Of a stretch of 64,000 bases of DNA, positions 6,481 to 51,539 are shown piece after piece. The notes under the pieces are model-generated. The model made no database searches. It was given only the letters and a program-made list of their open reading frames with translations, and was not told the origin of the DNA. The DNA is from Ceratodon purpureus (taxonomy: Eukaryota > Streptophyta > Bryopsida > Pseudoditrichales > Ditrichaceae), in the NCBI GenBank assembly GCA_014871385.1, contig CM026433.1:16127808-16191807 (forward strand), in the 5' to 3' direction. Position 1 is the first letter of the stretch. The number at the start of each line of letters is the position of its first letter. The position numbers were made by a program, and so were the translations under genes.

Positions 6481-6499
6481 AAGGGAGTACTGGAAACAA

Positions 6500-25668: not shown

Positions 25669-26091
25669 TGTTAACCGGAGATTTCTCAATCTTCCCTCCC
25701 TCAGTTTCAGTAGCCTTTTTCGCAGTTTTTCATCCCTGGCTCCGACAGTCATCCAGTCGGCTGGATGAACTCTGTCACAGCCGACTGGATGAACTCTGTC
25801 GTAGCCGACTGGATGATTTCTGCTAGGTTCTTAAGGCAGGTTTTAGGGTTTCTAAGATCATTCCTCACTAGTGCACTCAGAGTTAGGAGAGACTGAGGAG
25901 TCTTTATGAGCTACTGTACCATGATTTTGGGGCAGATTTGACCCTGTTTATACAGTTTTTACTCACTTTTCCACTTCTTTTGAGTGTTTCCAGCATTGTA
26001 TGAGTGTTTCAGCACCATTGTTAGTTGGGTTTTTGTAGGGTTTTGATGGGTTGTGAAGGTTAGGGTTTTATGGGAAATCCTCCCTTTACCA
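25669..26091 (+). repeat. E2 5' LTR (423 bp)
   Basis: Opens TGTTAACCGG, ends CCCTTTACCA. Contains a 24-bp tandem array with the GCCGACTGGATGA core (25754-25815). Two differences from the 3' LTR, both in the stretch that reads gaccctgtttatacag. Confidence 0.95.
25754..25815 (+). repeat. Three 24-bp tandem repeats in E2 LTR
   Basis: Units contain (A)GCCGACTGGATGAACTC; the first is preceded by CATCCAG so that catccagtcggctggatg is a near-perfect palindrome. The same array is in the 3' LTR at 51202-51263. Being in the LTR it could be part of the promoter/enhancer. Confidence 0.85.
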
Positions 26092-29560: not shown

Positions 29561-30179
29561 TGGAGTTGCAGGAGTTAGATAACCCTGAAGTGGCCACTAT
29601 ACTAACCAGGGCGGCTAGGGTGCGAGCTGGACTTCCACTGGAAGATAAGGAACTGAGAGAGCCAGAACCTCGACTGCCAAAGACTCAGGCAGACTGGGAG
29701 AAAGAGGAACGGCTCCGGAAGGAATTCATTGCTTTAACTGAGGAGGTTAATCGGGAGAATGAGCTGGCACAGCAGAAGGAAGAGGAGCTTCAAAAAGCAA
29801 ATGCGGATAACTCTACATCCACAGTTACAGATGGACCAGTACTGGATAGTGACTGGGCAGGGTTTCCTGATGCGGACTGCTTGCAGGAGACACCCAAGCT
29901 GGTGCCGACTGGGACTTCGACAGAGCCGACTACTTCCCAGCCTTCAACAGCCGTTAAGACTGTGAGCAGACAGATTTTACAGACACCTATTACTGTGTCT
30001 TTGGGGGAACTGCTCGAAGTGGCCCCCAACCTTACTGAGTATGTCAGAGCGAAAGTATTTCCCAATACTCAGAGACAGCATAGATTGTCATTTGAGCCGA
30101 TTCAGCATCAGCAGACTTTAATGAAGACACAGCCTACAACAACACCAGTGGATATCCAGAATCCCCAAGGATCATCGGT

Positions 30180-33100: not shown

Positions 33101-33915
33101 TAACTCTGGTCAGCGACCAAGGCACTCACTTCATCAACGAGGCCATCGAGTATTTGGTACAGCACTTTCTTCTCCAGCATCGGACATCCACAACTTACTA
33201 TCCACAGGGCAATGGACAAGCAGAATCGACCAACAAGGTTCTAGGGCGGATACTTACCAAACTGGTCAGTGACAACAGGACTGACTGGGATGAGCATTTA
33301 CCGACTGCCTTATTCTCTTACAGGACCGCTTTTAAGGTTAGTACTGGGTATACCCCTTTTCAGCTAGTCTACGGGCTCCATCCACTTATGCCTACGGAGT
33401 ACACTGTCCCTACCCGCAGAACCGACGGTGCGATTGATTTTACTCAAACTCGAGTCTTACAGGCTCGCACAGCCGACCTGGAGCAGCTGGATAGTCACAG
33501 GTTGGCAGCGCAGGACCAGTCCGGTAGTAGGCAGTGGAACAGATCTTTGTGGAGCCAACAACACTACCGACAGAAGGATTTTCAAGTGGGGGACCATGTT
33601 CTCTGGTACCCCAAGGGCGAAAAGGAACATGCCGGGAAATTTAAGAGCAGGTGGTTCGGGCCATATCGCGTTCAGTACCGGCTACCTAACAATACAGCCC
33701 TGCTAGTAACTGAGGGTCATTTTGAGCCCAACCCCATCATTGTCAACATTAATAAGTTGAAGCCTTACAGGTTTTATTCGGAAGATCAGTTGGTCACTAT
33801 CGGCCCCAAGCAGCTGCCACGTGGTATCCCCACAAACCCTAATGTGCAGCCGCCCGTACCAACGACTCCCGGCACCCAACAGTTAAACGACACCGAACCC
33901 ATCGAGGATCAGTGA
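30180..33915 (+). CDS. E2 pol region (PR-RT-RNase H-IN)
   Basis: Retropepsin motif [11 protein letters not shown] near 30270. RT with [11 protein letters not shown] near 31660 and the preceding [15 protein letters not shown]. RNase H with [10 protein letters not shown] near 32100, [13 protein letters not shown] and VDHMALVYL. Integrase HHCC finger (GGHF...ACDKCQ) around 32735-32850, catalytic core [12 protein letters not shown] near 32920, SDQGTHF near 33110, [14 protein letters not shown] near 33200, and RWFGPYRV near 33650. It ends about 100 residues after the GPY module without a chromodomain. Many codons differ from E1 in ways that create GCCGAC in the DNA. Confidence 0.9.
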
Positions 33916-33945
33916 GTTGGCTCTAAACATTCTTCCAGCTCTACC

Positions 33946-36160
33946 ATGGAGGCTTCTGCGTGTCACACTGCCTCTACTCACGGCCCTACCATTACTACCT
34001 CACCCACTCTCCCCGACAGTAATGATCCGCCCCCTCGCCTACCCACTGTTCCTACAGTCGGGTGTTTTTCAGTCCAGCCTATGGACATTTCTACACCGGC
34101 TCCCTCTCCCCTTTTCTCCCAAACCCTACATCCCCCTCGTCTACCCCATAGCTCACCTCTCTCAGCCACTGTCTCTCACTCTCCACCGAGGTTGCTTCCT
34201 CCTTCTCTTGTCGATTTCGCTATCGCTCAGCCCCCGAAGCCCACTTCTCCTGTAGCGCAGTGTTGCCTGCTGCGGCCTTTTTCCTCTAGCACAGCCGCAG
34301 AAGTACGCCGGGGCGCAGCATCACGGGACTTGGAAGGATCGTGGACTCCACCAAACAGCCACCGCACTCCGAGTTCCGGCATCCCGACCGCAGCCGTTGG
34401 CGTTGCTTTTCCAGCTACCGTCGCAGTGCCATCTGCTTGCTTCCATTCAGACTTGGTGGGCCGCAGCAACCCTCCCGAGACACCATCGCTGAAGGCACCG
34501 GACCCCGATGCGCAGTTATCGACTTCCTCCCGACTGAAGCCACCGGTGCCTCCACACACCTCGGGTCAGTTGCTCGATCAAGGTTTTCAATTTTCTCCTC
34601 CTCCGTACTCTCCATTAGCGGTTGCTGTTTTTCCTTTAGACTCCCCGCGTTCTCGCCCGTCTCCCGGCAGTGTGACTGCATTTCCCTCTTCCTGGTCGAG
34701 ACTTTTAGCTGCTGTCAAATCAGAAAGTGTAGCCAGTGAGGTGCGGCCTGGCACTGTTCTTCCTCTTCCGGCCATATCCCCCCCTGGAGGCCGACTTTAG
34801 GTCTCAGCACTGTAATCGGGTTTGTCGGTCTGTAACCCACCCTTCGGAGTCATTCACTTTCCCCGCATCCGAGCTGGTTGCTCAGCCACAGTGTGTCACA
34901 AATAGGGCTGATGGCTCTGAGCCGATCTCAGCCCCAACGTCGGGGAGTAGTCCATCAGACCCCCTAGATTTTCCCGTCCATTGCTCGCAGGCTTACTCCT
35001 TACGCTGCGGCTTCACCAACAGTGCTGCTGCACCAGTCCCTGTTCAGCATCGGCGCCACAACCGCCGACGAAGACGAGGCCGATTCGGCACCCTCGAAAG
35101 ATACTTTGCTCGGGGTGTCCTTCCTTCTTCCGACAGCATCGAAGCAATGGAAGAGCCCGGTCCCAGCCAGCCTCCAGTTACTCTGGACACGCCACCGAAC
35201 CTTGCAGAGCAGACCGACACGCCGGTAAGCCCTGTTGCGGCTATCGCCCAACCACTGTCAACTGCTGACTCCCTGCCCCCCAGCCAGGATCAGCGCCGGG
35301 GCACGAAACGTAAGCTCACCCCCGTAGACGGCCGCGTTCCACGATGCATTCAGGTTTCTCGCAAACCTAACCGACGGTGGGACTTTGTCTTCGAACCATA
35401 CACACAGTGGACTCCTTGGACCAGTATGGGAGACGATGATTGGGCGGCTCAGGTTAGTTTGGAAGTTTTTTATCATTTTCAGTGGCCGGAGCCTCGGACA
35501 GAACTGCTGCTTGATTTTGTGGAGGGGTTCGAATATATACAGCCACCCAAGGGAAAAAGACGACCTGCAAGCGAGTTAGGAGGACCTATTCGTTCCATGG
35601 TACGAGGTAAGCCAGTTGAAATCACTGCTTACGTTATTCGTGCTGCATTGGGCTTTGAGGCTGGAGTGGATATGGCTGGTCGAAAGCAGGTGACAGGCTA
35701 CCAACCGCGGTACAGTCAATACGGTCTGGCGGAGGAAGACTGGCAGCACGATGGTAACCGAGCCACAGCCCTCTTGCCTGCTTATCAGGTGCGGACCCAG
35801 GCTATTGGCGATGCTATTGGGTTTAAACAGCGCTTGCTGTTTGTCAGCAATGACCTCATGGACCACATCTGTGCGGCCGAGTCTGCTGGTGACCAAGGGA
35901 GGAGATTCGACTGGTCCCAGTTCGTCCTTACCAACCTCCGACGCCATTTGGTGTATATTCACTCGCAAGCCCCGGGAACGCGCCGTCTCCGAGGAGCACC
36001 TGTCATGGATGCTATCCTCTCTTATTGGTTTCCAGAGCGAGAGCAGGTTATCAAACCCCGCCAAGTCTCTTCTAGTGTTGACACAGCCGACGGCAGCCAC
36101 GAAGGTCCGCCAGCTAGCACACCACCCATTGTCAGCTCTGCTCTACGCGCTCAAACCAGT
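33946..36160 (+). CDS. E2 accessory region, part left of the E3 insertion
   Basis: Coding-like DNA 3' of integrase. A Pro/Ser/Thr-rich low-complexity part (33946-34800) is followed by a part with basic patches and then a globular domain at about 35380-36060 (DDDWAAQVSLEVFYHFQWPE, PRTELLLDFVEGFEY, VRGKPVEITAYVIRAALGFE, AILSYWFPERE). The domain aligns with the E1 accessory domain at about 8490-9130 and recalls the 'putative plant transposon protein' domain. E3 interrupts the region at 36160. The region as a whole is broken. No membrane segment. Function unknown. Confidence 0.7.
36156..36160 (+). repeat. E3 target-site duplication, left (CCAGT)
   Basis: CCAGT directly left of E3, repeated exactly at 49526-49530. 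Confidence 0.9.
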
Positions 36161-37093
36161 TGTCGGAACACGGAAACGCAACTAACATCCGGATAGTGCT
36201 CTAATTGAGCGTAAACTTCCGTACTGTCACTAGGTTCCGAGTATCGTCCAGGGATTCAATAGTGTTTCACCAAGTAGTTACTTCTAATCGTTCCGAGCCT
36301 TACCACTGCTCGGATAGTGTCTTCGGAACGTAACTCCCGAACTATCTCCTTCTCTATTCTTCTCTCATTAGGTGTTTCGTCCACAAACCCCAACGTCTCG
36401 GATCAGTTACCGTCTCACAACTGTCCTAGAGTACTCTGGCCAGCAGGTCACACAAACGATCCTCTCCGATTCGTGGGACTACAACGACAAACCAATCCGG
36501 ATCTGGGAGAACCAGGATCCGATTATCCCTAGGCGACCCGTACCACGTTCCGACTCCCCCTCTCACTATGCACGGAACCTCTTCAGAAGTTCAGGGAGCC
36601 CGACCAAGTAGTTCTTGATCCGCTTCGACCCTAGCGACGGCTATTCCGTATGAGGTTGATTTGGGGACGGAACAGTGAGGCTTCACTCCTACGACAATCC
36701 GCTAAATCTTTCCGCTCAATCCCATTTCCTTTCCGATTCGGGTCTCGTCGCAACTCCCATCACCTTCCTATCCGAGCTACAGCGGAACTCTCATATCCTT
36801 CCCGGATCATTCACACTTAGCGGGAAATCACGCACAGTACTTACAAAATACAAATACTTTACTGATAAGGAATATAGGAGGAAAACATGCAAAACGAAGA
36901 CCCGGACCGCATCGCCTGCCCGGTTTAAGTAAGCAGGGGCTTCACAAAAGCGGCGGCGCCGGCAGTTCAATCAAAACCCTAATCCCTAACTACCTACCTA
37001 GAATTCTACTTTACGACTAGGACGGATCTCCCGATCCGGAATCTACTCCTATAAATCCGGAAAGTTACGACAAGTGGCAGTGAGAGGAATCTA

Positions 37094-39289
37094 TCACTTC
37101 TTTGTCTTCTTGTGGCTCTCCTGCTCGCGATCCTTCGACCTGGTCACCCGCGGCTCTGATCCGCCCGCCCCTGCTGCTCGTGCCGCCTTGCGCCTAGCAC
37201 TCCGTTCCGCCTTTGACTCCCTCTCCTGAGCCTCCAAAGACAACCGGGTAACGATCCGGGGCTTGGGAGAATTGGGCGATTTCGGAATCATATGTGCGGG
37301 AGGAGTTCCGGACGTCGGAGTCTGAGTTTCAGTTCCGGTGGTCCTGACCGGAGAGCTCCCATGCGTCTCTGAGTCGGACTCGGAAATCGTAATCGGCTCC
37401 TTCCTTTTCCGCAACCTCCGGAACTCACCGACAGTGTTCTGAGGGGAACCTGCTGCTGGCGTTCCGGTGGGAGTAGGCGTCACCGTTCCGGTCTTGGCTG
37501 TGGGTGAAGGGGTCAATCCCCCCTCCTGAGTTACTCGGGTCCGTCCGGGTGGTGAAATAGGTCGTCCCCATTCCGGTCCCGCTACCTCCCCTCGGTAATT
37601 CGCAATGATCACTTCATCTCCGAGTCGTGGAAGAACATCCGGCGGCACGGTCCGAGTCACCTGTTCCGAAACCGTCCTCTCCTCGATCCGCCTCTCGGTG
37701 ACTGTCGTTCCGGTCACCTGCACCTGTCCGGTGGGGATCGCGCAGCTCTGCTGGACTGTACTGGTTCCGGGTGACACCGCCTGTGCTTGGACTTCTCGGA
37801 TCGCCTCCGCAATCGTCCGATTTGTCATGGCGGCTTCTTCGGCCGTCATCTGTTCTGCTGCTTGGAGGTTACTCCCTATCGGGGTTCGGAACCCCACTCC
37901 GCGAGATTCTCCTACCACGGCACGGGAGGGCGATCCGGGGAGCGGAAGACCCCGGCCAGCGCCCACGAGACTGGGACTTCCGGTGCTCGGATTGAGCAGC
38001 TGCCGGACCTTCTTCAGGATCATGTTCATCGAATGCTCGCACTTGGAGAGGATCTTGATAATCTTCTGCTTGTCCTCGAAATCAGCCGGCTGCACTACGT
38101 TCTCATCGAACAGCCGGGCCTTGTTGATTACCGCTCCGGAACTTCCCACCAACTTCCGAAGCTCCCCCAAAGTCTCCTCCTGCTCGGCGTGGAACTTACG
38201 GATCTCGTCACTCTTCGCCGCCAGCTCCTTCGTCAACTCCTGCAACTGAAGCTCCAGCCGCTTCTTCTCACTCCGGAGAGTTGGGGCATCCTTCAACAAC
38301 TCCACTTCTCGGATCACCTCTTCCGGTAAGCACCCTCCCAGCGCTGTACAGACCCTCCGGAACAGGGTTTCGATCCGATCATAAGAAGCTTGAGCCCGGT
38401 GAGTCTCCTCCCGAATTCCCCGAAACAGGTCCACCGGAAATCCCCGATCGGAACTGACCTCTCTCCGTTCCGGATCTCCCCGGGCCGTAGACGGTTCCGC
38501 GTGTCGTGACGCGGGCTGCTCCGATCTCGATCTGGACTGAGCCCTAGCAGCGCCAGGGTTCGGAACTTCCCTCGTATCGTCCTCATCCTCCGAGTCCGTT
38601 GTATCAGAGGGCTCACCTCGCGGATCGGGTTCCATTCCGGGCGGAATCTCCGAGAAGTTGAGGCAGTTCTTCGCGTGCGTATACGTCTCGTCCTCCTTAT
38701 CGGTCAGCAAGTCATTCGCATGGTAAAGGTGAAAGAGGTAAGGGGAGAGTGGGGTCGGCTTCTTTCCGATCGTCGGAACCATCTTCTGCACCACTTCCGC
38801 CATGAGTGCAGCCCAATTCACCGGACGTTCTCCTGTATACGCTCCGAGAATGGTATTCCCGACCGTAATGGTAACTTGTGCCGGTTTCTGCGGATATAGG
38901 ATCGGGACGAGGAAAGCTAAGACCTGCCTCTGCCTCCTATCCTTGCAGGCGTCTATCTCGTATCCATTGTTCCTATGGATCTTCCCGTGGAACCTATCCT
39001 GCACGTACTGATCCGTCCGGGTCGCCCAAAGGAGTCCCTTCTGCTCGAAACCGTAAGCTTCCGCCCACTGTTCCGCATTCCACAGCGTGGGCTTGCCTCG
39101 GATCGTTTTATCCCACCGGTTGTCCGGACCTTCCAGGACCTCCCTCACCATCACCTCACTCTTCAGTAACCACGGCCGTGCCAACAATCCCTCACACCTC
39201 ATCCGAGTGAGGTCGGTGATCAGTTCCTCCATATCCGATTCCTTCACTGGAGTTCCGGGGCTAAGGACGCAACACTGAACGCGTGCCAT
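37094..39289 (-). CDS. E3 LTR-encoded accessory protein, 3' LTR copy (731 aa)
   Basis: A 731-residue open frame lying wholly inside the LTR, in element sense, so in this copy it is 3' of pol, where E1 and E2 carry their accessory regions. Order: a globular N-terminal part (~1-225; LLARPWLLKSEVMVREVLEG, ILYPQKPAQV), an acidic linker (DTTDSEDEDD), an Arg-rich patch, a coiled coil at ~315-385 (RLELQLQELTKEL...), a Ser/Thr/Pro-rich part and a basic tail (RKRKEP, HKKTKK) that could be a nuclear signal. No signal peptide, membrane segment, gag or pol motif. WNAEQWAEAYGFE weakly recalls ITAWTIQQALGIE of E1. It differs from the other LTR copy at about one residue. Function unknown. Confidence 0.8.
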   Translation of the reverse strand: MARVQCCVLSPGTPVKESDMEELITDLTRMRCEGLLARPWLLKSEVMVREVLEGPDNRWDKTIRGKPTLWNAEQWAEAYGFEQKGLLWATRTDQYVQDRFHGKIHRNNGYEIDACKDRRQRQVLAFLVPILYPQKPAQVTITVGNTILGAYTGERPVNWAALMAEVVQKMVPTIGKKPTPLSPYLFHLYHANDLLTDKEDETYTHAKNCLNFSEIPPGMEPDPRGEPSDTTDSEDEDDTREVPNPGAARAQSRSRSEQPASRHAEPSTARGDPERREVSSDRGFPVDLFRGIREETHRAQASYDRIETLFRRVCTALGGCLPEEVIREVELLKDAPTLRSEKKRLELQLQELTKELAAKSDEIRKFHAEQEETLGELRKLVGSSGAVINKARLFDENVVQPADFEDKQKIIKILSKCEHSMNMILKKVRQLLNPSTGSPSLVGAGRGLPLPGSPSRAVVGESRGVGFRTPIGSNLQAAEQMTAEEAAMTNRTIAEAIREVQAQAVSPGTSTVQQSCAIPTGQVQVTGTTVTERRIEERTVSEQVTRTVPPDVLPRLGDEVIIANYRGEVAGPEWGRPISPPGRTRVTQEGGLTPSPTAKTGTVTPTPTGTPAAGSPQNTVGEFRRLRKRKEPITISESDSETHGSSPVRTTGTETQTPTSGTPPAHMIPKSPNSPKPRIVTRLSLEAQERESKAERSARRKAARAAGAGGSEPRVTRSKDREQESHKKTKK

Positions 39290-39441
39290 CTCTACTCCTC
39301 ACTTCTCTCCCTCTACGATCCGACAGCAAGAAACCCGGCAATCCAACTGCCGGTGAATCGGAAAAGACAAGGACACCTCACCGCTCTTTCACTCTCTACT
39401 CCCAGTTCGCAAAAAGGAACTCCAAACCCTAACACCCTCGC

Positions 39442-39448
39442 TTATATA
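39442..39448 (-). promoter_or_regulatory. TATA-like box in E3 3' LTR
   Basis: TATATAA on the minus strand (GGGTATATAAGC context), about 155 bp before the Met of the LTR frame at 39289. Same as the box at 49153-49159 in the other LTR. Confidence 0.55.
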
Positions 39449-39814
39449 CCCCCGGCATAATAAACGCTGTGGCGGCCCGTAATTGCAGCCGCCAACGTAC
39501 CGGGGTAAACGCCTATCCGAGTCATGATGACTTCCGCGTCGCTTCGGATCCTTGACGCGGTTACAGTAACGGTCAGTACTCGGATCGTCCACCCGTTCCG
39601 TATCTTATCTTCCGAGTTTCCGGGATCCAGGTTCCGGGGACACTTCCTACATTAACTGTTTTAACGTTTCTGGAGTATCCGATTTGCGTTAACTACTAAT
39701 GCTGCTAGTGTCTGGCCAGTTTTTACCTAATTAACCAAAAAAAATGAAAAATAAATGAAATACTTACGCCGGCTGGGGCCTTTCCGGTTTATTCTGAGTT
39801 TCTCGGATCCCACA

Positions 39815-39829
39815 TTACCCCATTTTCAA
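39815..39829 (-). other. E3 polypurine tract
   Basis: On the minus strand gaaaatggggtaa runs directly into the TGTGGG that opens the 3' LTR. Expected plus-strand primer position. Confidence 0.75.
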
Positions 39830-39850
39830 ATGTGAGAGTCCCCGCGAACA

Positions 39851-42800
39851 CTATTCTTCTTCCTCCCCTTCCGGGCTTTCGCTTCCTTCGGTGTCTGTGA
39901 ACTCCTCAGGGTTGTAATTCTTCACTCGGGATCCGTTCACCCGGGTTTCGAAGCTATTTCCCTGGAGGTCCGCCAGTTGTAATGATCCGTTTTCAAAGAT
40001 CCGCGTAACCCGGTAAGGTCCCATCCATCTCGTATGTAACTTTCCCGGAAACTTTTGGTGCCGATTATCGTATAAGAGCACCAAGCCTCCTTCTACCACC
40101 TTATTGTCCTTAGGAATTTTCTTGTCGTAGGTCTCCTTACGCTTTGCCTGGACATCTACAGCCTGCTGTAGAGCGCCTCTCCTGACTTCTTCCAGATCCT
40201 GTAGTGCCACGATCCGGTACCCCGGATCCTCGACTCTCGTCCCGTGACGGGCAGCCATAACCCGTAAGGTTTCTACCTCCAACTCCACTCCGTGAACTGC
40301 GGATTGTCCAAAAACTAGGAAGAACGGACTCTTACCCATGGTTTTCTTCTCACTGGTATTGTAGGCGTGTACAGCTGAAGGGAGCTTCCGATCCCAATCC
40401 GTCTTATGAGCCGAGACCATCTTGTTCAGAATCTTTCCGACGATGCCATTGGCTCGTTCCGTCAGCCCATTCGCTTTCGGATTATAAGGGGTCGTCTTCC
40501 GGTGCTTGATGAGATACCGTTCCGTGATATTGATGATGACATCGTTCAGGAAATGTTTTCCCCGGTCACTTACCAGCTCTAACGGATGTCCAAATCTCAT
40601 CATTATTTCTTCAAAGAGAAATGTGGCTGCGGCTGCGGCGTCATTCTTCACCGTTGCTCTTGCCTCTACCCATCTGGTCGCATAATCCGTAGCCAGGATA
40701 ATGTATCTCCTCTTCCGGGCTGTGACCGGATTGATCGGTCCGATAAAGTCTATCCCCCATTTTTCAAACGGAGCCAAGGGAATAATGGGAGTGAGGGGCC
40801 AGTGGTTTCGGAATGAGGGTGCCCCGGTTCTTTGACACTGGTCACACTGCCCTACGAATTCCTTCACGTCTCGGGAGAGGTACGGCCACCAATATCCGGC
40901 TGATCGGATTCGCTTGATGGTTGTATCCGAGGCGAAATGGCCGCCCGAGGGTCCGGCGTGTAAGGCCCTCATGACCTGCCTTCTTTCGGATTCCTCGAGG
41001 CACCTCCGTAATACATCATCCGGTCCCATCCGGAAAAGTACTCCTCGGATCAGTGTGAAAGGAGCTACTGTATTCTGAAATACCATCTTCTCCTCCCGCG
41101 TAAATCCCTCCGGGTACCTCCGTTGTGTTAAATACTGGATAATCTCTGAATAATCGGAGTTCTCCGTTCCGGAAATGTGAAATACCTCCGCCTCTTCCGG
41201 AAACTCATCCGGGAACGTGGCGGTGATGTCCGAGACTGCTTCCGGGCCTCGCATCCTTGACAGGTAGTCAGCGTTGGCATTGGCCTTACCCGGTTTCACT
41301 ACTACCTCGTAGTTGAATTCCTGGAGCAGCAAGATCCATCGTGCAATACGCCCTGAGAGATCCGGTTTGTTCACCAAATACTTCAGGGAGTCATGATCCG
41401 TATGGAACACGATCTTGTATCCGAGAAGGTAGTGCCGGAACTTCTTGCAGGCGTAAACTACCGCCAAGGCTTCCCGTTCAGTGGTAGTATATTTCCGTTC
41501 CGCAAGGCTCATCTGTCTGCTAGCATAATAGATCGGGTGCTCCTTCCGATCCTCCCCTGGCTGCCACAGAATCGCCCCTAGGCACCACCCGGAAGCGTCG
41601 ATTGTCACATGGAATTCCTTCGACCAATCCGGTGCTGATAGGATCGGAGCGGTGGTCAGGGCCTTCTTCAGTTCCTCGAACGCTTGCTGTCTCCGTTCCG
41701 TCCACAAAAACTCTTCTTCCTTCTTCAACAGTTCCGTTAATGGGGCTGCCAATTTGGCATACGCAATAATAAACCTCCGGTAGTATCCGACGCATCCTAG
41801 GAATCCTCGGACCTCTCGGACGTTGGTGGGAGACACTAGAATAAGGATAGCTCGTACCTTATCCGAATCGACTTCCAACCCGTTCCGACTTACGATGTGC
41901 CCGAGAAGAATTCCGGAAATCATCCCCATAAAACATTTTCCGGGGTGTAATTTCAGTCCGGTTTCCCTGCACCTCTGGAAGGTCCTTCGGAGGTACTCGA
42001 GATGTTCCTTCCACTTACTGAACACCGCGAAGTCATCGATGAAGACTTCTAGAAAATGCCTCAAGAAATCTCGGAAAATATCCACCATCAGCCTTTGGAA
42101 TGTTCCGGGAGCGTTACACAGTCCGAAGGGCATCCTGTTGAAGGCGAACGTCCCCCATTCCGTGGTGAAGGTCGTCTTCAGCTGATCTTCTTCCCGGATC
42201 GACACCTGGTTGTAACCGGAAAATCCATCAAGAAAGCTGTAGCACTCCTGCCCTGCCACGTGATCGAGGATAATGTCCGTAAAAGGTAACGGAAAGTAAT
42301 CCTTCTTTGTGGCCGCATTCAGTTTCCGGAAATCTTGACAAACTCGGATCTTGACTTTCCCATCCGAGCCAACCTTCTTCGGAACGACGACTATGGGCGA
42401 TACCCACTCGGAATTATTTACTGGATAAATGAATCCGGCTTTCAGGAGGCTATCGATCTCTTCCTTCACCATCAGAGAATACTTCGGATTGAGCCTGTAC
42501 TGGCGTTGTCGGACCGGAACTGATCCGTCAACCAAGTCTATATGATGTTGGCCGAGTTCCGGAGGTATTCCCTTGAGGTCGGATGGTGACCAAGCGAATA
42601 CGTCTAAATATTCCTTTAGTAAATCCACATACTCCTTTCTCTGCTCCTTGCTCATGCTTCGCCCTAGCAGAAATGTCTTTCCGGGGGCTACTTCCACCTT
42701 CTCATAGTCGGACGGTTTCACAACGTTCTTGACTCGCTCCGATTCCTGTTCCTCTCCCTGATCCGTCCATGCGCTCCACACCCGGACAGGGGTGTCCGGA

Positions 42801-43996
42801 TCGAGACCCATGGCGGGCAGGTTTCCCTCCTCGACCTGTTGTCGGAACCATTCGGCTGAGAGTGGAACACTTCCTTCTCCGAGAGAGCGATCCTCCGGTA
42901 CCGGGAATTTCACGTGCTCCGATGATGGTTGGGGTTGCTCACTGATCGGATTATGAAATCGGAAGTCATCCTCGGTAACTTCCGAGAACTGATTCACGAA
43001 ATAACTAAATACTTCGTCATCCTCCTCTTCCGGGTCGGACCAATCAGAAGTATACCCATCCGAGCCACTGGTTTCCCCTAGATATCCATCCATCTTCCAC
43101 GGAATCCGCTGATTGGTTTTTCCGAGTACGAACTCCTTGGCTCCCCAATCAACGAGGACTCGTGCCATGTATAGCCAGGGTCTTCCCAACAACATCGGAA
43201 AGGGACGGCCCGTACTAACTCGGATTATCACGTAATTCAAGAGGTAGGTTACCTCTCCGATCGCGGTCGGAACCTGGGACAACCTTCCCACGGGTTTAAC
43301 CCTAGATTGATCCGCCATTCGTAACACCTGATCGGTGGATTCGAACGAGGTGTATCCGAGTTCAAAGGCCGTATCTTCCAGCATCAGGTTCACACCGGAT
43401 CCTCCATCTACCGGAACTTTCGGTATAGCACATCCTTCTATTAGCACCGTCAGTTCCGGGGCTCCGTGATCCTCAACCTGTAAGAAGTTAGTAGCTACAG
43501 ACGGAAGCTTCACCCCTCGGCGCCTCCGCTTCGTCCATGCCTCTCGGATTACCTTCTGGTAATTCACATTGTCATGGAGCAACTGTCCAATCGTGACATT
43601 TGCCTTGAGGGATTTGATGTCCCCCAGAATGTCATACTCGTCCACTCTGGGATCGGAAGGAATAACCACCGGAACGTCATCAAACCGGACCGAAGGCTTG
43701 GTGATCTTCCGGGAAAGGGGATCCGTGAGTTCTTTCCGAACTTCCTCACTGATATCTTCCGGGAGGTTCCCTCCTTCCACCCCATTTTCCGCTCTTGGAC
43801 GGTCATTTTCTTCTGGTAAAGCTCTGGTTACCGTAGAGGGTTCGGATCCTGAATCCGAATCCACTCTCCTGGATCTTACCCTCCTCCTGGTCTTCCGGGA
43901 TTTCGGAAGCTCCGGTTCCTGGGCACGCTCTCTAGCGGAACTACGGGTTGATACTCTGTGTACTGGTACTTCCGCGCCCTCCTGTAGTTCCGTCAC
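39851..43996 (-). CDS. E3 pol (PR-RT-RNase H-IN, 1381 codons)
   Basis: Retropepsin motif [15 protein letters not shown] (about residues 190-205). RT from ~480 with [37 protein letters not shown] and the catalytic FIDDFAVFS. RNase H with [30 protein letters not shown] and HTDHDSLKYL. Integrase HHCC finger (GGHFASDTTIKRIRSAGYWW...CDQCQ), catalytic core KWGIDFIGPINP, ATDYATRWVEA, VSDRGKHFLND and NPKANGLTERANGIV, then a WMGPYRV GPY module; no chromodomain. The frame is open throughout. It is in the same phase as gag and follows it almost directly, so it is probably made by stop-codon read-through, which related plant gypsy elements are known to use; an own Met is also present. Confidence 0.93.
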   Translation of the reverse strand: MTELQEGAEVPVHRVSTRSSARERAQEPELPKSRKTRRRVRSRRVDSDSGSEPSTVTRALPEENDRPRAENGVEGGNLPEDISEEVRKELTDPLSRKITKPSVRFDDVPVVIPSDPRVDEYDILGDIKSLKANVTIGQLLHDNVNYQKVIREAWTKRRRRGVKLPSVATNFLQVEDHGAPELTVLIEGCAIPKVPVDGGSGVNLMLEDTAFELGYTSFESTDQVLRMADQSRVKPVGRLSQVPTAIGEVTYLLNYVIIRVSTGRPFPMLLGRPWLYMARVLVDWGAKEFVLGKTNQRIPWKMDGYLGETSGSDGYTSDWSDPEEEDDEVFSYFVNQFSEVTEDDFRFHNPISEQPQPSSEHVKFPVPEDRSLGEGSVPLSAEWFRQQVEEGNLPAMGLDPDTPVRVWSAWTDQGEEQESERVKNVVKPSDYEKVEVAPGKTFLLGRSMSKEQRKEYVDLLKEYLDVFAWSPSDLKGIPPELGQHHIDLVDGSVPVRQRQYRLNPKYSLMVKEEIDSLLKAGFIYPVNNSEWVSPIVVVPKKVGSDGKVKIRVCQDFRKLNAATKKDYFPLPFTDIILDHVAGQECYSFLDGFSGYNQVSIREEDQLKTTFTTEWGTFAFNRMPFGLCNAPGTFQRLMVDIFRDFLRHFLEVFIDDFAVFSKWKEHLEYLRRTFQRCRETGLKLHPGKCFMGMISGILLGHIVSRNGLEVDSDKVRAILILVSPTNVREVRGFLGCVGYYRRFIIAYAKLAAPLTELLKKEEEFLWTERRQQAFEELKKALTTAPILSAPDWSKEFHVTIDASGWCLGAILWQPGEDRKEHPIYYASRQMSLAERKYTTTEREALAVVYACKKFRHYLLGYKIVFHTDHDSLKYLVNKPDLSGRIARWILLLQEFNYEVVVKPGKANANADYLSRMRGPEAVSDITATFPDEFPEEAEVFHISGTENSDYSEIIQYLTQRRYPEGFTREEKMVFQNTVAPFTLIRGVLFRMGPDDVLRRCLEESERRQVMRALHAGPSGGHFASDTTIKRIRSAGYWWPYLSRDVKEFVGQCDQCQRTGAPSFRNHWPLTPIIPLAPFEKWGIDFIGPINPVTARKRRYIILATDYATRWVEARATVKNDAAAAATFLFEEIMMRFGHPLELVSDRGKHFLNDVIINITERYLIKHRKTTPYNPKANGLTERANGIVGKILNKMVSAHKTDWDRKLPSAVHAYNTSEKKTMGKSPFFLVFGQSAVHGVELEVETLRVMAARHGTRVEDPGYRIVALQDLEEVRRGALQQAVDVQAKRKETYDKKIPKDNKVVEGGLVLLYDNRHQKFPGKLHTRWMGPYRVTRIFENGSLQLADLQGNSFETRVNGSRVKNYNPEEFTDTEGSESPEGEEEE

Positions 43997-44002
43997 GAAC
44001 CG

Positions 44003-45832
44003 TCATTTGTCCGGATTCTCTATCCCACCCGAGTGACCGTAGTTTAGCCCAGTCATCTCTCTCGGAGGAACCTCTACCTGTTTGAAAGTCGGGCGGGGTT
44101 GTGCCGGTTTGGCACACTGAGGAGCCGTATGACCGTACTCTCCGCAATTTTGGCACGGAAGGATCCGCGGTGCTCCCTGCCCTTGTCGCTCAAACGGACA
44201 GTTAGGTGCGTAATGATCCGGGCTTCCACAGTTGAAGCAGTACCCGTGGGTCGGCTTCTGGTACATCGGCCTACCCGGAACGTTCTGTGGGATCCGGTAT
44301 CCGGCGGGAGGACGGGCTATCTGGATCGGAGCCTTCCCTCGTCCGTAAGTGGTCTGAACCTGATATACAGGTTGGTACTCCTCCATCTGAAACTCTTCCT
44401 CTTCCGGATAGGCAAAGTACACTTCTTCTTCCGGATGGACGTAGTGGATACGTTTCTGGCGGGGTTCAGTACACTCCGGAGGATAATGTCCTTGCTTTCC
44501 GCAGTTAGCACACCACACATTAGCTCTGCTGGTGGGAATCATCTTACGAGGTTTCCGATTCTCGGAAAGGTGGACGTTGAGTTCGGCAATCGATTCTCGG
44601 ATCTCCTTCATCTCCTTCATGACCTTCCGAGAATCGTCATCCTCCACCTTCACCTTGATCAACTCTCGGTTCCGTCTAGGCCGGGTGTCTCTACTGGAGC
44701 CGCCTCGGCGTTTCGAGGCTCCCCTGGAGTCCTCTTCCGACTGATCGGAACTGGATGAAGTGGAATCGCTCTTACTGGTAGAGTCGGAATCTTCCGAAGA
44801 GGACTCGTGCCTCCGCCGGCGCTCTCTCTCCTTCCGGATCTTCTTACCCCGCTTCTCGGTATGCTTCAGAGACTTCCGTAGAGATTGGGCCGAGTTCTCA
44901 TAGTTCTGAGCCGCTTCCACGGCTTCCTGAAGTGTGGCGGGACGGGTTTGTCGGATCTGAAACCCCATCTCCTCTGGGAATCCGGCGACAAACCATTCCA
45001 CTTGTACACTCGGAGCTATGGCCGTAGTGAGTTTCTGTATGAGCGCCTTTACTCTCTGACTGTACTTTCGTACTGACTCGGAAGATCTCATCGTCATACG
45101 ACTCAGCTTTCCGAGCGCGCGAGCCTCTCCTCCGGCCTCACGGAACGTGCGTCGGAACAAGGTCACGAAACTGGTCCAGTCGTTACGTGTGCGTTCCGGA
45201 ACGTCTTGGTACCACTGTAGAGCTTCTCCCTTCAGAAGACCTTGGAATATCCTTCTCTTCGCGTCCGGATCTTCCTGATTGGCCAGAGCAATGGATTCGA
45301 ACTCACAGAGCCATTCGTCCACGTCTTGACTTCCGTCTCCTTTGAATCGGTTGTACTTCAGTCGGGTAGAGGGTGCCATCGGATTGTCTTCCTCGTCTTC
45401 TTCCTCTTCCTCGGTCTCCTCTTCTACTCCTGCGTCGGCTCCGACTTCGTCAGCTACGACCTCTTCTTCTTCCGGATCTGGAGCTGTACCTGCTCCGGCT
45501 GTGGAGGTTCCGGCCAACGACACCACGATTACGTCTCCTTCTCGTTCTACAGCAGTCTGGATCCGGGGGAGTAGATTCGTTCCCGGTAGATCGTGTACCA
45601 AAACTCTTCCCCTCTTCTGTAGCAACCGAGTGGATCTTCTTCCCCCTAACTCTTCCGGTTGCGCCCCAACCATGGAAGAGATTGGGAATTCTTCTTCCGA
45701 TTCCTCGGAAGGCAGGATCTGCACGTAAGACTTCCGCCTACCGCATATCCACCTAAATGAAGCCTTCACGGTCTGACTCCACTTTTCTTCAAATCTGCGC
45801 TCACTTATCTTCCGAGTATCCACCTGGATCAC
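44003..45832 (-). CDS. E3 gag (609 codons)
   Basis: Capsid/nucleocapsid protein. It has an acidic N-terminal part (EEEEVVADEVGADAGVEEE and on), then the retrotransposon gag domain (RFKGDGSQDVDEWLCEFE, GLLKGEALQWYQDV, SVRKYSQRVKALIQKL, WFVAGFPEEMGFQIRQ), and a Ser/Arg/Lys-rich linker. Three CCHC knuckles follow: CANCGKQGHYPPEC, CFNCGSPDHYAPNC and CQNCGEYGHTAPQC. Three knuckles instead of one or two is notable. The frame is open. The first Met lies just 3' of the primer-binding site, so the leader between LTR and gag is only a few tens of bases. Confidence 0.93.
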   Translation of the reverse strand: MIQVDTRKISERRFEEKWSQTVKASFRWICGRRKSYVQILPSEESEEEFPISSMVGAQPEELGGRRSTRLLQKRGRVLVHDLPGTNLLPRIQTAVEREGDVIVVSLAGTSTAGAGTAPDPEEEEVVADEVGADAGVEEETEEEEEDEEDNPMAPSTRLKYNRFKGDGSQDVDEWLCEFESIALANQEDPDAKRRIFQGLLKGEALQWYQDVPERTRNDWTSFVTLFRRTFREAGGEARALGKLSRMTMRSSESVRKYSQRVKALIQKLTTAIAPSVQVEWFVAGFPEEMGFQIRQTRPATLQEAVEAAQNYENSAQSLRKSLKHTEKRGKKIRKERERRRRHESSSEDSDSTSKSDSTSSSSDQSEEDSRGASKRRGGSSRDTRPRRNRELIKVKVEDDDSRKVMKEMKEIRESIAELNVHLSENRKPRKMIPTSRANVWCANCGKQGHYPPECTEPRQKRIHYVHPEEEVYFAYPEEEEFQMEEYQPVYQVQTTYGRGKAPIQIARPPAGYRIPQNVPGRPMYQKPTHGYCFNCGSPDHYAPNCPFERQGQGAPRILPCQNCGEYGHTAPQCAKPAQPRPTFKQVEVPPREMTGLNYGHSGGIENPDK

Positions 45833-45840
45833 AGCTTATC

Positions 45841-45861
45841 GAATCCCCGGCAGCGGCGCCA
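45841..45861 (-). other. E3 primer-binding site (tRNA-Asp type)
   Basis: Minus strand TGGCGCCGCTGCCGGGGATT, nearly the classic plant PBS TGGCGCCGTTGCCGGGGA complementary to a tRNA 3' end (usually given as tRNA-Asp). It starts 10 bases after the 5' LTR end, a gap also known from Tat/Ogre-type elements. Confidence 0.85.
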
Positions 45862-46804
45862 GATTTTTACGTGTCGGAACACGGAAACGCAACTAACATC
45901 CGGATAGTGCTCTAATTGAGCGTAAACTTCCGTACTGTCACTAGGTTCCGAGTATCGTCCAGGGATTCAATAGTGTTTCACCAAGTAGTTACTTCTAATC
46001 GTTCCGAGCCTTACCACTGCTCGGATAGTGTCTTCGGAACGTAACTCCCGAACTATCTCCTTCTCTATTCTTCTCTCATTAGGTGTTTCGTCCACAAACC
46101 CCAACGTCTCGGATCAGTTACCGTCTCACAACTGTCCTAGAGTACTCTGGCCAGCAGGTCACACAAACGATCCTCTCCGATTCGTGGGACTACAACGACA
46201 AACCAATCCGGATCTGGGAGAACCAGGATCCGATTATCCCTAGGCGACCCGTACCACGTTCCGACTCCCCCTCTCACTATGCACGGAACCTCTTCAGAAG
46301 TTCAGGGAGCCCGACCAAGTAGTTCTTGATCCGCTTCGACCCTAGCGACGGCTATTCCGTATGAGGTTGATTTGGGGACGGAACAGTGAGGCTTCACTCC
46401 TACGACAATCCGCTAAATCTTTCCGCTCAATCCCATTTCCTTTCCGATTCGGGTCTCGTCGCAACTCCCATCACCTTCCTATCCGAGCTACAGCGGAACT
46501 CTCATATCCTTCCCGGATCATTCACACTTAGCGGGAAATCACGCACAGTACTTACAAAATACAAATACTTTACTGATAAGGAATATAGGGGGAAAACATG
46601 CAAAACGAAGACCCGGACCGCATCGCCTGCCCGGTTTAAGTAAGCAGGGGCTTCACAAAAGCGGCGGCGCCGGCAGTTCAATCAAAACCCTAATCCCTAA
46701 CTACCTACCTAGAATTCTACTTTACGACTAGGACGGATCTCCCGATCCGGAATCTACTCCTATAAATCCGGAAAGTTACGACAAGTGGCAGTGAGAGGAA
46801 TCTA

Positions 46805-49000
46805 TCACTTCTTTGTCTTCTTGTGGCTCTCCTGCTCGCGATCCTTCGACCTGGTCACCCGCGGCTCTGATCCGCCCGCCCCTGCTGCTCGTGCCGCCTT
46901 GCGCCTAGCACTCCGTTCCGCCTTTGACTCCCTCTCCTGAGCCTCCAAAGACAACCGGGTAACGATCCGGGGCTTGGGAGAATTGGGCGATTTCGGAATC
47001 ATATGTGCGGGAGGAGTTCCGGACGTCGGAGTCTGAGTTTCAGTTCCGGTGGTCCTGACCGGAGAGCTCCCATGCGTCTCTGAGTCGGACTCGGAAATCG
47101 TAATCGGCTCCTTCCTTTTCCGCAACCTCCGGAACTCACCGACAGTGTTCTGAGGGGAACCTGCTGCTGGCGTTCCGGTGGGAGTAGGCGTCACCGTTCC
47201 GGTCTTGGCTGTGGGTGAAGGGGTCAATCCCCCCTCCTGAGTTACTCGGGTCCGTCCGGGTGGTGAAATAGGTCGTCCCCATTCCGGTCCCGCTACCTCC
47301 CCTCGGTAATTCGCAATGATCACTTCATCTCCGAGTCGTGGAAGAACATCCGGCGGCACGGTCCGAGTCACCTGTTCCGAAACCGTCCTCTCCTCGATCC
47401 GCCTCTCGGTGACTGTCGTTCCGGTCACCTGCACCTGTCCGGTGGGGATCGCGCAGCTCTGCTGGACTGTACTGGTTCCGGGTGACACCGCCTGTGCTTG
47501 GACTTCTCGGATCGCCTCCGCAATCGTCCGATTTGTCATGGCGGCTTCTTCGGCCGTCATCTGTTCTGCTGCTTGGAGGTTACTCCCTATCGGGGTTCGG
47601 AACCCCACTCCGCGAGATTCTCCTACCACGGCACGGGAGGGCGATCCGGGGAGCGGAAGACCCCGGCCAGCGCCCACGAGACTGGGACTTCCGGTGCTCG
47701 GATTGAGCAGCTGCCGGACCTTCTTCAGGATCATGTTCATCGAATGCTCGCACTTGGAGAGGATCTTGATAATCTTCTGCTTGTCCTCGAAATCAGCCGG
47801 CTGCACTACGTTCTCATCGAACAGCCGGGCCTTGTTGATTACCGCTCCGGAACTTCCCACCAACTTCCGAAGCTCCCCCAAAGTCTCCTCCTGCTCGGCG
47901 TGGAACTTACGGATCTCGTCACTCTTCGCCGCCAGCTCCTTCGTCAACTCCTGCAACTGAAGCTCCAGCCGCTTCTTCTCACTCCGGAGAGTTGGGGCAT
48001 CCTTCAACAACTCCACTTCTCGGATCACCTCTTCCGGTAAGCACCCTCCCAGCGCTGTACAGACCCTCCGGAACAGGGTTTCGATCCGATCATAAGAAGC
48101 TTGAGCCCGGTGAGTCTCCTCCCGAATTCCCCGAAACAGGTCCACCGGAAATCCCCGATCGGAACTGACCTCTCTCCGTTCCGGATCTCCCCGGGCCGTA
48201 GACGGTTCCGCGTGTCGTGACGCGGGCTGCTCCGATCTCGATCTGGACTGAGCCCTAGCAGCGCCAGGGTTCGGAACTTCCCTCGTATCGTCCTCATCCT
48301 CCGAGTCCGTTGTATCAGAGGGCTCACCTCGCGGATCGGGTTCCATTCCGGGCGGAATCTCCGAGAAGTTGAGGCAGTTCTTCGCGTGCGTATACGTCTC
48401 GTCCTCCTTATCGGTCAGCAAGTCATTCGCATGGTAAAGGTGAAAGAGGTAAGGGGAGAGTGGGGTCGGCTTCTTTCCGATCGTCGGAACCATCTTCTGC
48501 ACCACTTCCGCCATGAGTGCAGCCCAATTCACCGGACGTTCTCCTGTATACGCTCCGAGAATGGTATTCCCGACCGTAATGGGAACTTGTGCCGGTTTCT
48601 GCGGATATAGGATCGGGACGAGGAAAGCTAAGACCTGCCTCTGCCTCCTATCCTTGCAGGCGTCTATCTCGTATCCATTGTTCCTATGGATCTTCCCGTG
48701 GAACCTATCCTGCACGTACTGATCCGTCCGGGTCGCCCAAAGGAGTCCCTTCTGCTCGAAACCGTAAGCTTCCGCCCACTGTTCCGCATTCCACAGCGTG
48801 GGCTTGCCTCGGATCGTTTTATCCCACCGGTTGTCCGGACCTTCCAGGACCTCCCTCACCATCACCTCACTCTTCAGTAACCACGGCCGTGCCAACAATC
48901 CCTCACACCTCATCCGAGTGAGGTCGGTGATCAGTTCCTCCATATCCGATTCCTTCACTGGAGTTCCGGGGCTAAGGACGCAACACTGAACGCGTGCCAT
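46805..49000 (-). CDS. E3 LTR-encoded accessory protein, 5' LTR copy (731 aa)
   Basis: Second copy of the 731-residue frame, identical to the 3' LTR copy except for about one residue (Pro for Thr near residue 150). In this LTR it stands between the likely promoter and gag, so it could be translated from the 5' end of the full-length RNA or from its own short transcript. Same parts: globular N-terminus, acidic linker, coiled coil, Ser/Thr/Pro-rich part, basic tail. Being kept open in both LTRs is expected after a recent insertion and does not by itself prove function. Confidence 0.8.
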   Translation of the reverse strand: MARVQCCVLSPGTPVKESDMEELITDLTRMRCEGLLARPWLLKSEVMVREVLEGPDNRWDKTIRGKPTLWNAEQWAEAYGFEQKGLLWATRTDQYVQDRFHGKIHRNNGYEIDACKDRRQRQVLAFLVPILYPQKPAQVPITVGNTILGAYTGERPVNWAALMAEVVQKMVPTIGKKPTPLSPYLFHLYHANDLLTDKEDETYTHAKNCLNFSEIPPGMEPDPRGEPSDTTDSEDEDDTREVPNPGAARAQSRSRSEQPASRHAEPSTARGDPERREVSSDRGFPVDLFRGIREETHRAQASYDRIETLFRRVCTALGGCLPEEVIREVELLKDAPTLRSEKKRLELQLQELTKELAAKSDEIRKFHAEQEETLGELRKLVGSSGAVINKARLFDENVVQPADFEDKQKIIKILSKCEHSMNMILKKVRQLLNPSTGSPSLVGAGRGLPLPGSPSRAVVGESRGVGFRTPIGSNLQAAEQMTAEEAAMTNRTIAEAIREVQAQAVSPGTSTVQQSCAIPTGQVQVTGTTVTERRIEERTVSEQVTRTVPPDVLPRLGDEVIIANYRGEVAGPEWGRPISPPGRTRVTQEGGLTPSPTAKTGTVTPTPTGTPAAGSPQNTVGEFRRLRKRKEPITISESDSETHGSSPVRTTGTETQTPTSGTPPAHMIPKSPNSPKPRIVTRLSLEAQERESKAERSARRKAARAAGAGGSEPRVTRSKDREQESHKKTKK

Positions 49001-49152
49001 CTCTACTCCTCACTTCTCTCCCTCTACGATCCGACAGCAAGAAACCCGGCAATCCAACTGCCGGTGAATCGGAAAAGACAAGGACACCTCACCGCTCTTT
49101 CACTCTCTACTCCCAGTTCGCAAAAAGGAACTCCAAACCCTAACACCCTCGC

Positions 49153-49159
49153 TTATATA
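49153..49159 (-). promoter_or_regulatory. TATA-like box in E3 5' LTR
   Basis: TATATAA on the minus strand (GGGTATATAAGC), about 155 bp before the Met at 49000 and about 370 bp inside the LTR. Best candidate core promoter of the element. Confidence 0.6.
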
Positions 49160-49525
49160 CCCCCGGCATAATAAACGCTGTGGCGGCCCGTAATTGCAGC
49201 CGCCAACGTACCGGGGTAAACGCCTATCCGAGTCATGATGACTTCCGCGTCGCTTCGGATCCTTGACGCGGTTACAGTAACGGTCAGTACTCGGATCGTC
49301 CACCCGTTCCGTATCTTATCTTCCGAGTTTCCGGGATCCAGGTTCCGGGGACACTTCCTACATTAACTGTTTTAACGTTTCTGGAGTATCCGATTTGCGT
49401 TAACTACTAATGCTGCTAGTGTCTGGCCAGTTTTTACCTAATTAACCAAAAAAAATGAAAAATAAATGAAATACTTACGCCGGCTGGGGCCTTTCCGGTT
49501 TATTCTGAGTTTCTCGGATCCCACA

Positions 49526-49530
49526 CCAGT
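49526..49530 (+). repeat. E3 target-site duplication, right (CCAGT)
   Basis: Exact copy of 36156-36160. Confidence 0.9.
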
Positions 49531-51116: not shown

Positions 51117-51539
51117 TGTTAACCGGAGATTTCTCAATCTTCCCTCCCTCAGTTTCAGTAGCCTTTTTCGCAGTTTTTCATCCCTGGCTCCGACAGTCAT
51201 CCAGTCGGCTGGATGAACTCTGTCACAGCCGACTGGATGAACTCTGTCGTAGCCGACTGGATGATTTCTGCTAGGTTCTTAAGGCAGGTTTTAGGGTTTC
51301 TAAGATCATTCCTCACTAGTGCACTCAGAGTTAGGAGAGACTGAGGAGTCTTTATGAGCTACTGTACCATGATTTTGGGGCAGATTTGACCCTCTTTATA
51401 CAGTTTTGACTCACTTTTCCACTTCTTTTGAGTGTTTCCAGCATTGTATGAGTGTTTCAGCACCATTGTTAGTTGGGTTTTTGTAGGGTTTTGATGGGTT
51501 GTGAAGGTTAGGGTTTTATGGGAAATCCTCCCTTTACCA
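51117..51539 (+). repeat. E2 3' LTR (423 bp)
   Basis: Same length as the 5' LTR, two substitutions. Followed directly by the AGCTC target duplication. Confidence 0.95.

What the first reader, a model, noticed from the sequence alone, without database searches (positions are those of the whole stretch)
36161..49525. A retrotransposon whose 3.65-kb LTRs each carry a 731-codon accessory gene
Seen: two 3654-bp repeats with TG/CA ends, flanked by CCAGT, each fully enclosing the same sense-strand frame. Gag and pol are separate and intact between them. Established: plant LTRs can be long but seldom code; a gene within an LTR is known mainly from mouse mammary tumour virus (sag). Inference: a 3' accessory gene, internal in relatives E1 and E2, has become part of the LTR, so every insertion carries two copies and the 5' copy lies between the promoter and gag.
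Basis: partly seen in the sequence, partly recalled or inferred. Interest (0 to 1): 0.9.

Follow-up and report, generated by a model that had tools for sequence, protein, structure and literature searches.

The report
Moss retrotransposon with gene-carrying LTRs
A young plant jumping element carries a complete, evolutionarily preserved 731-codon gene inside each of its two end repeats, so each insertion, and even a lone leftover end, brings the gene along; genes inside end repeats are otherwise known mainly from a mouse retrovirus.

Summary
Two 3654-bp LTRs (2 mismatches, TG/CA ends, CCAGT duplication) bound a young Ty3-type element on the minus strand, nested in a larger element. Each LTR encloses the same 731-codon sense frame. 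The genome (362 Mb, largest contig 110.5 Mb; probably the moss Ceratodon purpureus, inferred) holds about 100 such LTR loci among the matches listed. In 37 of 40 LTRs read the frame is intact; of 37 fetched copies (all but one faulty-looking) none has an indel in it, 26 have indels outside. Of 195 variants in the frame 132 are synonymous, 62 not, 1 a stop (ratio to neutral 0.22); differences between the two LTRs of one element look neutral (14:6). So it is a gene kept by selection through the replication cycle. The only TATA box of the LTR lies 160 bp upstream of the gene and is invariant; I favour the gene as first cistron, in R rather than U3. Homologues (97%, 56%, 32-35%) are in public protein data. 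That it is the relocated E1/E2 accessory gene is not supported. Gag and pol are one frame split by a conserved UGA-CGG. The protein's function (nuclear accessory) is inferred.

The parts
45872..49525 (-). 5' LTR of the element (3654 bp)
   Evidence: direct repeat, TG/CA ends, target duplication
36161..39814 (-). 3' LTR of the element (3654 bp)
   Evidence: 2 mismatches to the 5' LTR
36156..36160 (.). target-site duplication CCAGT, left copy
49526..49530 (.). target-site duplication CCAGT, right copy
46805..49000 (-). 731-codon LTR gene, copy in the 5' LTR
   Evidence: intact in 37 of 40 LTRs read; synonymous bias
37094..39289 (-). 731-codon LTR gene, copy in the 3' LTR (differs by one amino acid, P/T)
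49152..49159 (-). TATATAAG, the only TATAWAW match on the sense strand of the window LTR; putative promoter, 5' LTR
   Evidence: LTR positions 363-376 invariant in 38 sequences
39441..39448 (-). same TATA box in the 3' LTR
   Evidence: the two LTRs differ only at two other positions
46280..46405 (-). 126-bp block without any variant among 38 sequences (LTR 3121-3246), presumed cis-acting leader/U5 signal
45844..45861 (-). primer-binding site TGGCGCCGCTGCCGGGGA, 10 nt after the 5' LTR
   Evidence: sequence; unchanged in 18 of 18 copies; tRNA-Asp assignment recalled
44003..45673 (-). gag (capsid-like domain, two zinc knuckles)
   Evidence: ratio 0.155 over 17 of the 18 copies
43997..44008 (-). 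AAA TGA CGG TTC junction: in-frame UGA between gag and pol, putative readthrough site
39851..44002 (-). pol frame (protease-like DGGSG segment, RT, RNase H, integrase), continuous with gag except for the UGA
39815..39827 (-). putative polypurine tract GAAAATGGGGTAA next to the 3' LTR
   Evidence: sequence
25669..26091 (+). left LTR of the host element E2 into which this element is inserted
   Evidence: 99.5% to 51117-51539, duplication AGCTC
51117..51539 (+). right LTR of E2

Best explanation
This is a recently active Ty3-type LTR retrotransposon family whose LTR is itself a gene cassette. Shown: true LTRs; a 731-codon sense gene wholly inside each; the gene present in all 40 LTRs read and kept by purifying selection that acts through replication rather than on each resident copy. 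Inferred, likely: transcription starts about 25-30 nt after the invariant TATATAAG (LTR about 395-400), the leader to the gene's ATG (about 130 nt) holds no other ATG, so the gene is the first cistron of RNA made from either LTR and sits in R (or R/U5), not in U3. A short mRNA ending within the LTR would give the accessory protein; RNA that runs on is the genome. Gag, which follows 9 short upstream ATG frames, would then need splicing or internal initiation, and Gag-Pol is made by readthrough of UGA-CGG. A solo LTR would remain a complete promoter-gene unit. Inferred, weaker: the protein (conserved N-terminal domain, long coiled-coil-like helices, disordered S/T/P-rich tail with RKRK and a basic C terminus) is a nuclear accessory factor of the element, acting in trans within the family.
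For: Structure. Copies: 40 scored matches of 633 candidates, mostly in pairs about 9.7 kb apart; about 101 LTR loci and 36 pairs when the capped lists are merged by approximate position. Frame intact in 35 of 38 fetched LTRs plus both window LTRs; no indel in the frame in 37 of 38, while 26 of those 37 carry indels outside it. In one search, 66 of 69 scored matches (1636 candidates) have a frame of 732-739 codons without stop, 2 have one TAG, 1 has a 624-codon frame. Selection: 132 synonymous, 62 non-synonymous, 1 stop variant; ratio to neutral 0.22, binomial p 8e-25; helical region 288-435 26:1 (39 LTRs, L016 left out). gag 0.155 and pol N part 0.29 by the same method (L052 left out). Within-element differences 14:6 over 16 pairs against 48:126 for the rest, Fisher p 2.6e-4, approximate. 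Single TATA box, invariant; no ATG in LTR 395-525; 9 upstream ATGs before gag. Two solo LTRs with duplications (L025 GTCTC, L032 ATCCT) have an intact frame. Homologues: P0001 97% and P0002 56%, both full length, and ten at 32-35% over 52-58% of the query; 12 further proteins.
Against: No RNA data: start, polyadenylation and splicing are unmapped, and the R placement rests on one TATA box. A promoter without TATA could lie after the gene (LTR 2722-3000); a telo-box lies there as well as after the TATA box. One element (L039/L040) carries the same stop at codon 480 in both LTRs, so it transposed although its own gene was already truncated; the tail, or the protein in cis, is then not essential. 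The structure models are poor to moderate (mean pLDDT 41 and 61) and no solved fold matches, so function is not shown. The fetched copies are the best matches of one capped search, hence young and similar.
Confidence: 0.62

Rival explanations
1. The gene lies in U3, as sag of mouse mammary tumour virus does (U3 placement of sag from recall): the element's genomic promoter is downstream of the gene (LTR 2722-3000) and the TATA box at 367 is the gene's private promoter. The LTR grew because a new polypurine tract just after pol came into use, so that an old 3' internal gene became part of U3.
For: Only 36 bp separate pol from the 3' LTR, as a shifted polypurine tract would leave. A telo-box AGGGTTT follows the gene at LTR 2835 (another follows the TATA box at 385), and E2's LTR has three. 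Apart from the 14-bp TATA block, LTR 3001-3654 is the most conserved non-coding stretch (4.1% of sites variable), as expected of R-U5.
Against: No TATA box after the gene. E2's LTR is no more like either non-coding part of this LTR than shuffles are (scores 28 and 36 against maxima of 34 and 38 in 30 shuffles each). No supported homology of the gene to an internal gene of the relatives.
Confidence: 0.3
2. The open frame is accidental or a relic, without function.
For: Plant LTRs of 3 kb and more exist that are not reported to hold genes (PMC3485330 abstract and passages; PMC6317226 passages).
Against: Length far beyond random, synonymous bias p 8e-25, no indels in the frame in 37 of 38, full-length homologues at 97% and 56%.
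Confidence: 0.01
3. The repeats are nested or adjacent solo repeats, not LTRs of one element.
For: None found.
Against: Target duplication, primer-binding site and purine-rich tract in place; 36 pairs at near-constant spacing over the genome.
Confidence: 0.01
4. The protein serves the host (domesticated), and selection is for the host.
For: Two solo LTRs keep the frame open, though both are young.
Against: Differences arisen after insertion look unselected (14:6, ratio 1.09), while variants passed on through replication are filtered (0.18).
Confidence: 0.03

Closest known systems
Mouse mammary tumour virus sag (betaretrovirus)
   Same: An accessory gene inside a long LTR, hence two DNA copies per provirus (PMC3026287, passages seen).
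   Different: There the LTR is about 1.3 kb and Sag is made from spliced mRNAs whose acceptor lies just upstream of the frame in the 3' LTR (same passages). Here a TATA box lies 160 bp upstream of the gene in both LTRs, the gene has 731 codons, and the element is a plant Ty3-type one. Sequence relation to Sag was not tested.
Rice Retrosat2 / FRetro3 / RIRE3 / RIRE8
   Same: Plant elements with LTRs of about 3 kb or more and an extra frame upstream of gag-pol (PMC3485330, abstract and passages).
   Different: Their ORF0 is described as upstream of ORF1; the passages seen do not place it in the LTR, and the introduction says LTRs do not code for replication enzymes.
Plant elements with additional ORFs (Grande gene23, Retand TRP28, Athila, Ogre)
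   Same: Extra, in some cases nuclear, protein of unknown role (PMC7264820 parts 1-2 of 3; PMC11963269 passages; PMC6317226 passages).
   Different: Those frames are internal, 5' or 3' of the polyprotein; no LTR-located frame is mentioned in what I saw. The LTR protein has no Pfam match.
E1 and E2 of the same window
   Same: Related pol (40-47% identity) and an additional domain beyond gag-pol.
   Different: E2 has short LTRs (423 bp) and an internal accessory domain; homology to the LTR gene not supported.

Membership tests
LTR retrotransposon | two direct LTRs with TG/CA ends and target-site duplication | tested here: met
   ends and flanks of other copies
LTR retrotransposon | primer-binding site after the 5' LTR and purine tract before the 3' LTR | tested here: met
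   the tract GAAAATGGGGTAA is purine-rich but not pure
Ty3/gypsy (Metaviridae) | pol order PR-RT-RH-IN | tested here: met
   RVT_1 335-487, RNase H 561-690, H2C2 798-854, rve 871-969; protease-like DGGSG read from the translation
chromovirus branch | chromodomain at the end of integrase | tested here: not met
   no chromodomain in the Pfam scan of pol at E 0.1
Tat clade | additional RNase H (aRH) | tested here: inconclusive
   Pfam shows one RNase H region only; no tree was built
MMTV-type LTR gene | complete sense gene within the LTR | tested here: met
MMTV-type LTR gene | gene in U3, expressed from spliced mRNA of the 3' LTR | not testable with these tools
   no RNA data; TATA position argues for R
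MMTV sag family | sequence homology to Sag | not tested
   no Sag sequence was compared; the LTR protein matched no Pfam family
E1/E2 accessory protein | profile homology of the N-terminal domain | tested here: not met

The most novel reading that the evidence does not exclude
A retrotransposon has made its LTR a self-contained gene: promoter, leader, 731-codon gene and probably its polyadenylation signal lie within the repeat, the gene being the first cistron in R. Each insertion carries two expressed copies, each solo LTR left by recombination stays a working accessory gene, and the family thereby keeps a genome-wide trans-acting supply that outlives its own full-length copies.
Probability: 0.45. 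Interest if true: 0.85.

Novelty: new variant of a known kind. Interest (0 to 1): 0.74.

Why it matters
Textbook LTRs are regulatory; a large selected gene inside a plant LTR changes how copies are counted (solo LTRs are genes), gives the element twice the gene dose, and makes testable how an RNA with a 731-codon first cistron still expresses gag-pol. It also warns annotators that like genes paired about 9.7 kb apart can be LTRs.

Tried and rejected
Viral contig scans with the LTR protein, with alignment A1 and with pol found no relative; a scan of prokaryote genome contigs with A3 found none. Rfam (gathering threshold) and tRNA scans of the window were empty. Pfam at E 10: none for the window's LTR protein, weak scattered matches for its relatives (best E 0.007), none of note for the E2-type domain. 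Solved-structure sequence search: best E 0.72; Foldseek: best E 3.3. Folding of the 135 nt from just before the gag UGA is not better than shuffles (z -0.76), so the readthrough idea rests on the conserved UGA-CGG and the selected frame behind it. The E1/E2 homology idea was tried three times and dropped; the aligned stretch was nearly the same each time, so a very remote relation is not excluded.

Rows left out: L016 (28 indels, probably a local assembly fault) from the variant counts; L052 (same element as L016) from the ratios; L043, identical to L031, only; the pair L030/L031 (32 differences, apparently a mosaic) from the within-element count. The Fisher test subtracts within-element differences from the totals and is approximate. 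Lists of the genome search are capped, so copy numbers are lower bounds and positions merged are approximate. Papers were searched; in the listings I saw no plant LTR gene, but most papers were seen as listings only and only open-licence papers are held.
Full report
What is there. The two repeats at 36161-39814 and 45872-49525 are LTRs of one element on the minus strand: 3654 bp each, two mismatches, TG/CA ends, target duplication CCAGT. Ten bases after the 5' LTR lies TGGCGCCGCTGCCGGGGA, a primer-binding site (tRNA-Asp type, from recall); next to the 3' LTR lies a purine-rich tract. Between the LTRs are gag (556 codons, capsid-like domain and zinc knuckles) and pol (RT, RNase H, integrase; no chromodomain found). 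The element sits inside the accessory frame of a larger element, E2, whose own 423-bp LTRs lie at 25669-26091 and 51117-51539.

Gag and pol. They share one frame, interrupted by a single TGA in the context AAA TGA CGG TTC; the frame behind it is open up to the listed pol start. The TGA is there in 18 of 18 copies read, and the part behind it has a non-synonymous to synonymous ratio of 0.29 relative to neutral (17 copies). UGA-CGG is, from recall, a readthrough context of several plant viruses. So Gag-Pol is most likely made by readthrough; no significant stem-loop follows.

The LTR gene. LTR positions 526-2721 hold a 731-codon sense frame, far longer than composition allows. The window's genome was then searched: 362.5 Mb in 151 contigs; C6 has 110.5 Mb, ten others of C1-C12 have 16.7-29.0 Mb, and hit positions put C7 and C13 above 16 Mb. 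This fits, from recall, the moss Ceratodon purpureus with its large sex chromosome; no call names the organism (a review says only that its U and V are rich in repeats, PMC11062472, passage seen). One LTR-end query gave 40 scored matches of 633 candidates. All 38 that lie outside the window were fetched. With the two window LTRs, 37 of 40 have an intact 731-codon frame. The exceptions are L016 (28 indels, taken for an assembly fault) and both LTRs of one element with the same stop at codon 480. Apart from L016 no copy has an indel in the frame, yet 26 of 37 have indels in the non-coding rest of the LTR. A query with the distant relative P0003 gave 69 scored matches of 1636 candidates; 66 have frames of 732-739 codons without stop, 2 have one TAG, 1 a 624-codon frame. 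Merged by position, three searches give about 101 LTR loci, 72 of them in 36 pairs at 9-10.6 kb, 29 unpaired. Two fetched LTRs are solo LTRs with their own duplications, and both frames are intact.

Selection. Over 39 LTRs there are 195 variants in the frame: 132 synonymous, 62 non-synonymous, 1 stop; with the transition bias of the non-coding part the ratio to neutral is 0.22 (p 8e-25). By region: N domain 0.15, linker 0.24, helical region 288-435 0.02 (26:1), tail 0.36. gag gives 0.155 by the same method. Between the two LTRs of one element, that is after insertion, the count is 14:6 over 16 pairs (ratio 1.09); the remaining variants give 48:126 (0.18), Fisher p 2.6e-4, approximate. Selection therefore seems to filter what is passed on by retrotransposition and not resident copies. 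That is the signature of an element gene, and speaks against a host role.

Homologues. In 5.8 billion proteins the LTR protein has a 97% relative (P0001, 731 aa), a 56% relative over the full length (P0002, 723 aa) and ten at 32-35% over 52-58% of its length; a profile search listed 20 proteins, 12 of them new. Their genomic setting could not be read. In the window's genome the P0003 query listed matches of 34-36% whose frame lengths are those of the LTR family; no separate, closer P0003-type family appeared among the 69. The N-terminal domain has a strongly conserved core (DNRWD, KPxxVTITVGNTIxGA, GERPVxW). Models of low to moderate confidence give helices, long helices at 286-381 and a disordered tail. 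RKRK and a short I-x-[IL]-S-E-S-D-S stretch in the tail are found in both the window protein and P0002 (likeness to a SUMO-binding motif is recall; P0001 has A for T in that stretch, PIAISESDSE). No family or fold matched.

Promoter and expression. TATATAAG at LTR 367 is the only TATAWAW on the sense strand of the window LTR; LTR 363-376 is invariant in 38 sequences, while 1-362 varies at 10.8% of sites. From about 395 to the gene's ATG there is no other ATG, and nine short upstream frames precede gag. I therefore place the RNA start before the gene, making it the first cistron and placing it in R. A possible splice acceptor (TTACGTGCAG, element position 3798) lies after the last upstream ATG before gag, so a spliced gag-pol mRNA is conceivable; this is inference, and the next base after it varies between copies. 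The U3 alternative, with a promoter after the gene, stays open at about 0.3.

Origin. I built a 15-sequence profile of that domain, including 12 copies fetched for the purpose, and found no support (16 of 200 shuffles as good). The E2-type domain occurs singly: among the 98 scored matches only one same-strand pair lies within 25 kb. Of the 98, 21 lie in frames of 3,467-4,079 codons, one of these with a stop inside. So in those relatives gag, pol and accessory domain seem to form one giant frame; I did not read these frames. Where the LTR gene came from is unknown; only 36 bp between pol and the 3' LTR would fit a shift of the purine tract.

Known and new. Long LTRs as such are known (up to about 5 kb, PMC6317226 passages; Retrosat2 over 3.2 kb, PMC3485330 abstract). 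Extra frames in plant elements are known but are classed as 5' or 3' of the polyprotein (PMC6317226 passages; PMC7264820 parts 1 and 2 of 3). The well-known LTR gene is sag of mouse mammary tumour virus, made from spliced mRNA with an acceptor just upstream of the 3' LTR frame (PMC3026287 passages). I saw no plant case in the listings of searches. I rate this a new variant of a known kind.

Noticed in passing
window 44003-44005 and L049-L065: gag and pol are one frame split by a UGA in UGA-CGG context in 18 of 18 copies: putative stop-codon readthrough in a plant Ty3-type element.
   Followed up: yes
window 118-10632 (E1), 27129-36196 and 49531-50904 (E2); genome hits: E2-type relatives lie in open frames of up to about 3,500-3,600 codons (one 4,079) in which gag, pol and an accessory domain appear to be one polyprotein (21 of 98 scored matches with 3,467 codons or more).
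   Followed up: partly
window 28798-28844: E2 gag and pol frames overlap by 47 nt in different frames although E1 has one continuous frame there; either a frameshift site or a mutation.
   Followed up: no
L030 / L031 (contig C67): The two LTRs of one element differ at 32 sites, mostly between LTR 106 and 1731: a mosaic, probably exchange between copies.
   Followed up: no
L031 and L043 (contigs C67, C120): Identical LTRs with the same 8-nt flanks on two small contigs: probably the same locus assembled twice.
   Followed up: partly
L016 (contig C6): 28 short indels, 24 of them in the gene, in one LTR whose partner has one: looks like a local sequencing or assembly fault.
   Followed up: partly
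L039 / L040 (contig C8): Both LTRs share a stop at codon 480, so an element with a truncated LTR gene has transposed; suggests help in trans or a dispensable tail.
   Followed up: partly
window 52978-53931: Frame with two ion-channel domains, like a two-pore potassium channel, probably a host gene.
   Followed up: no
window 59163-61814: Two neighbouring frames (453 and 383 aa); the second has no Pfam match, the first was not scanned; possibly another mobile element.
   Followed up: no
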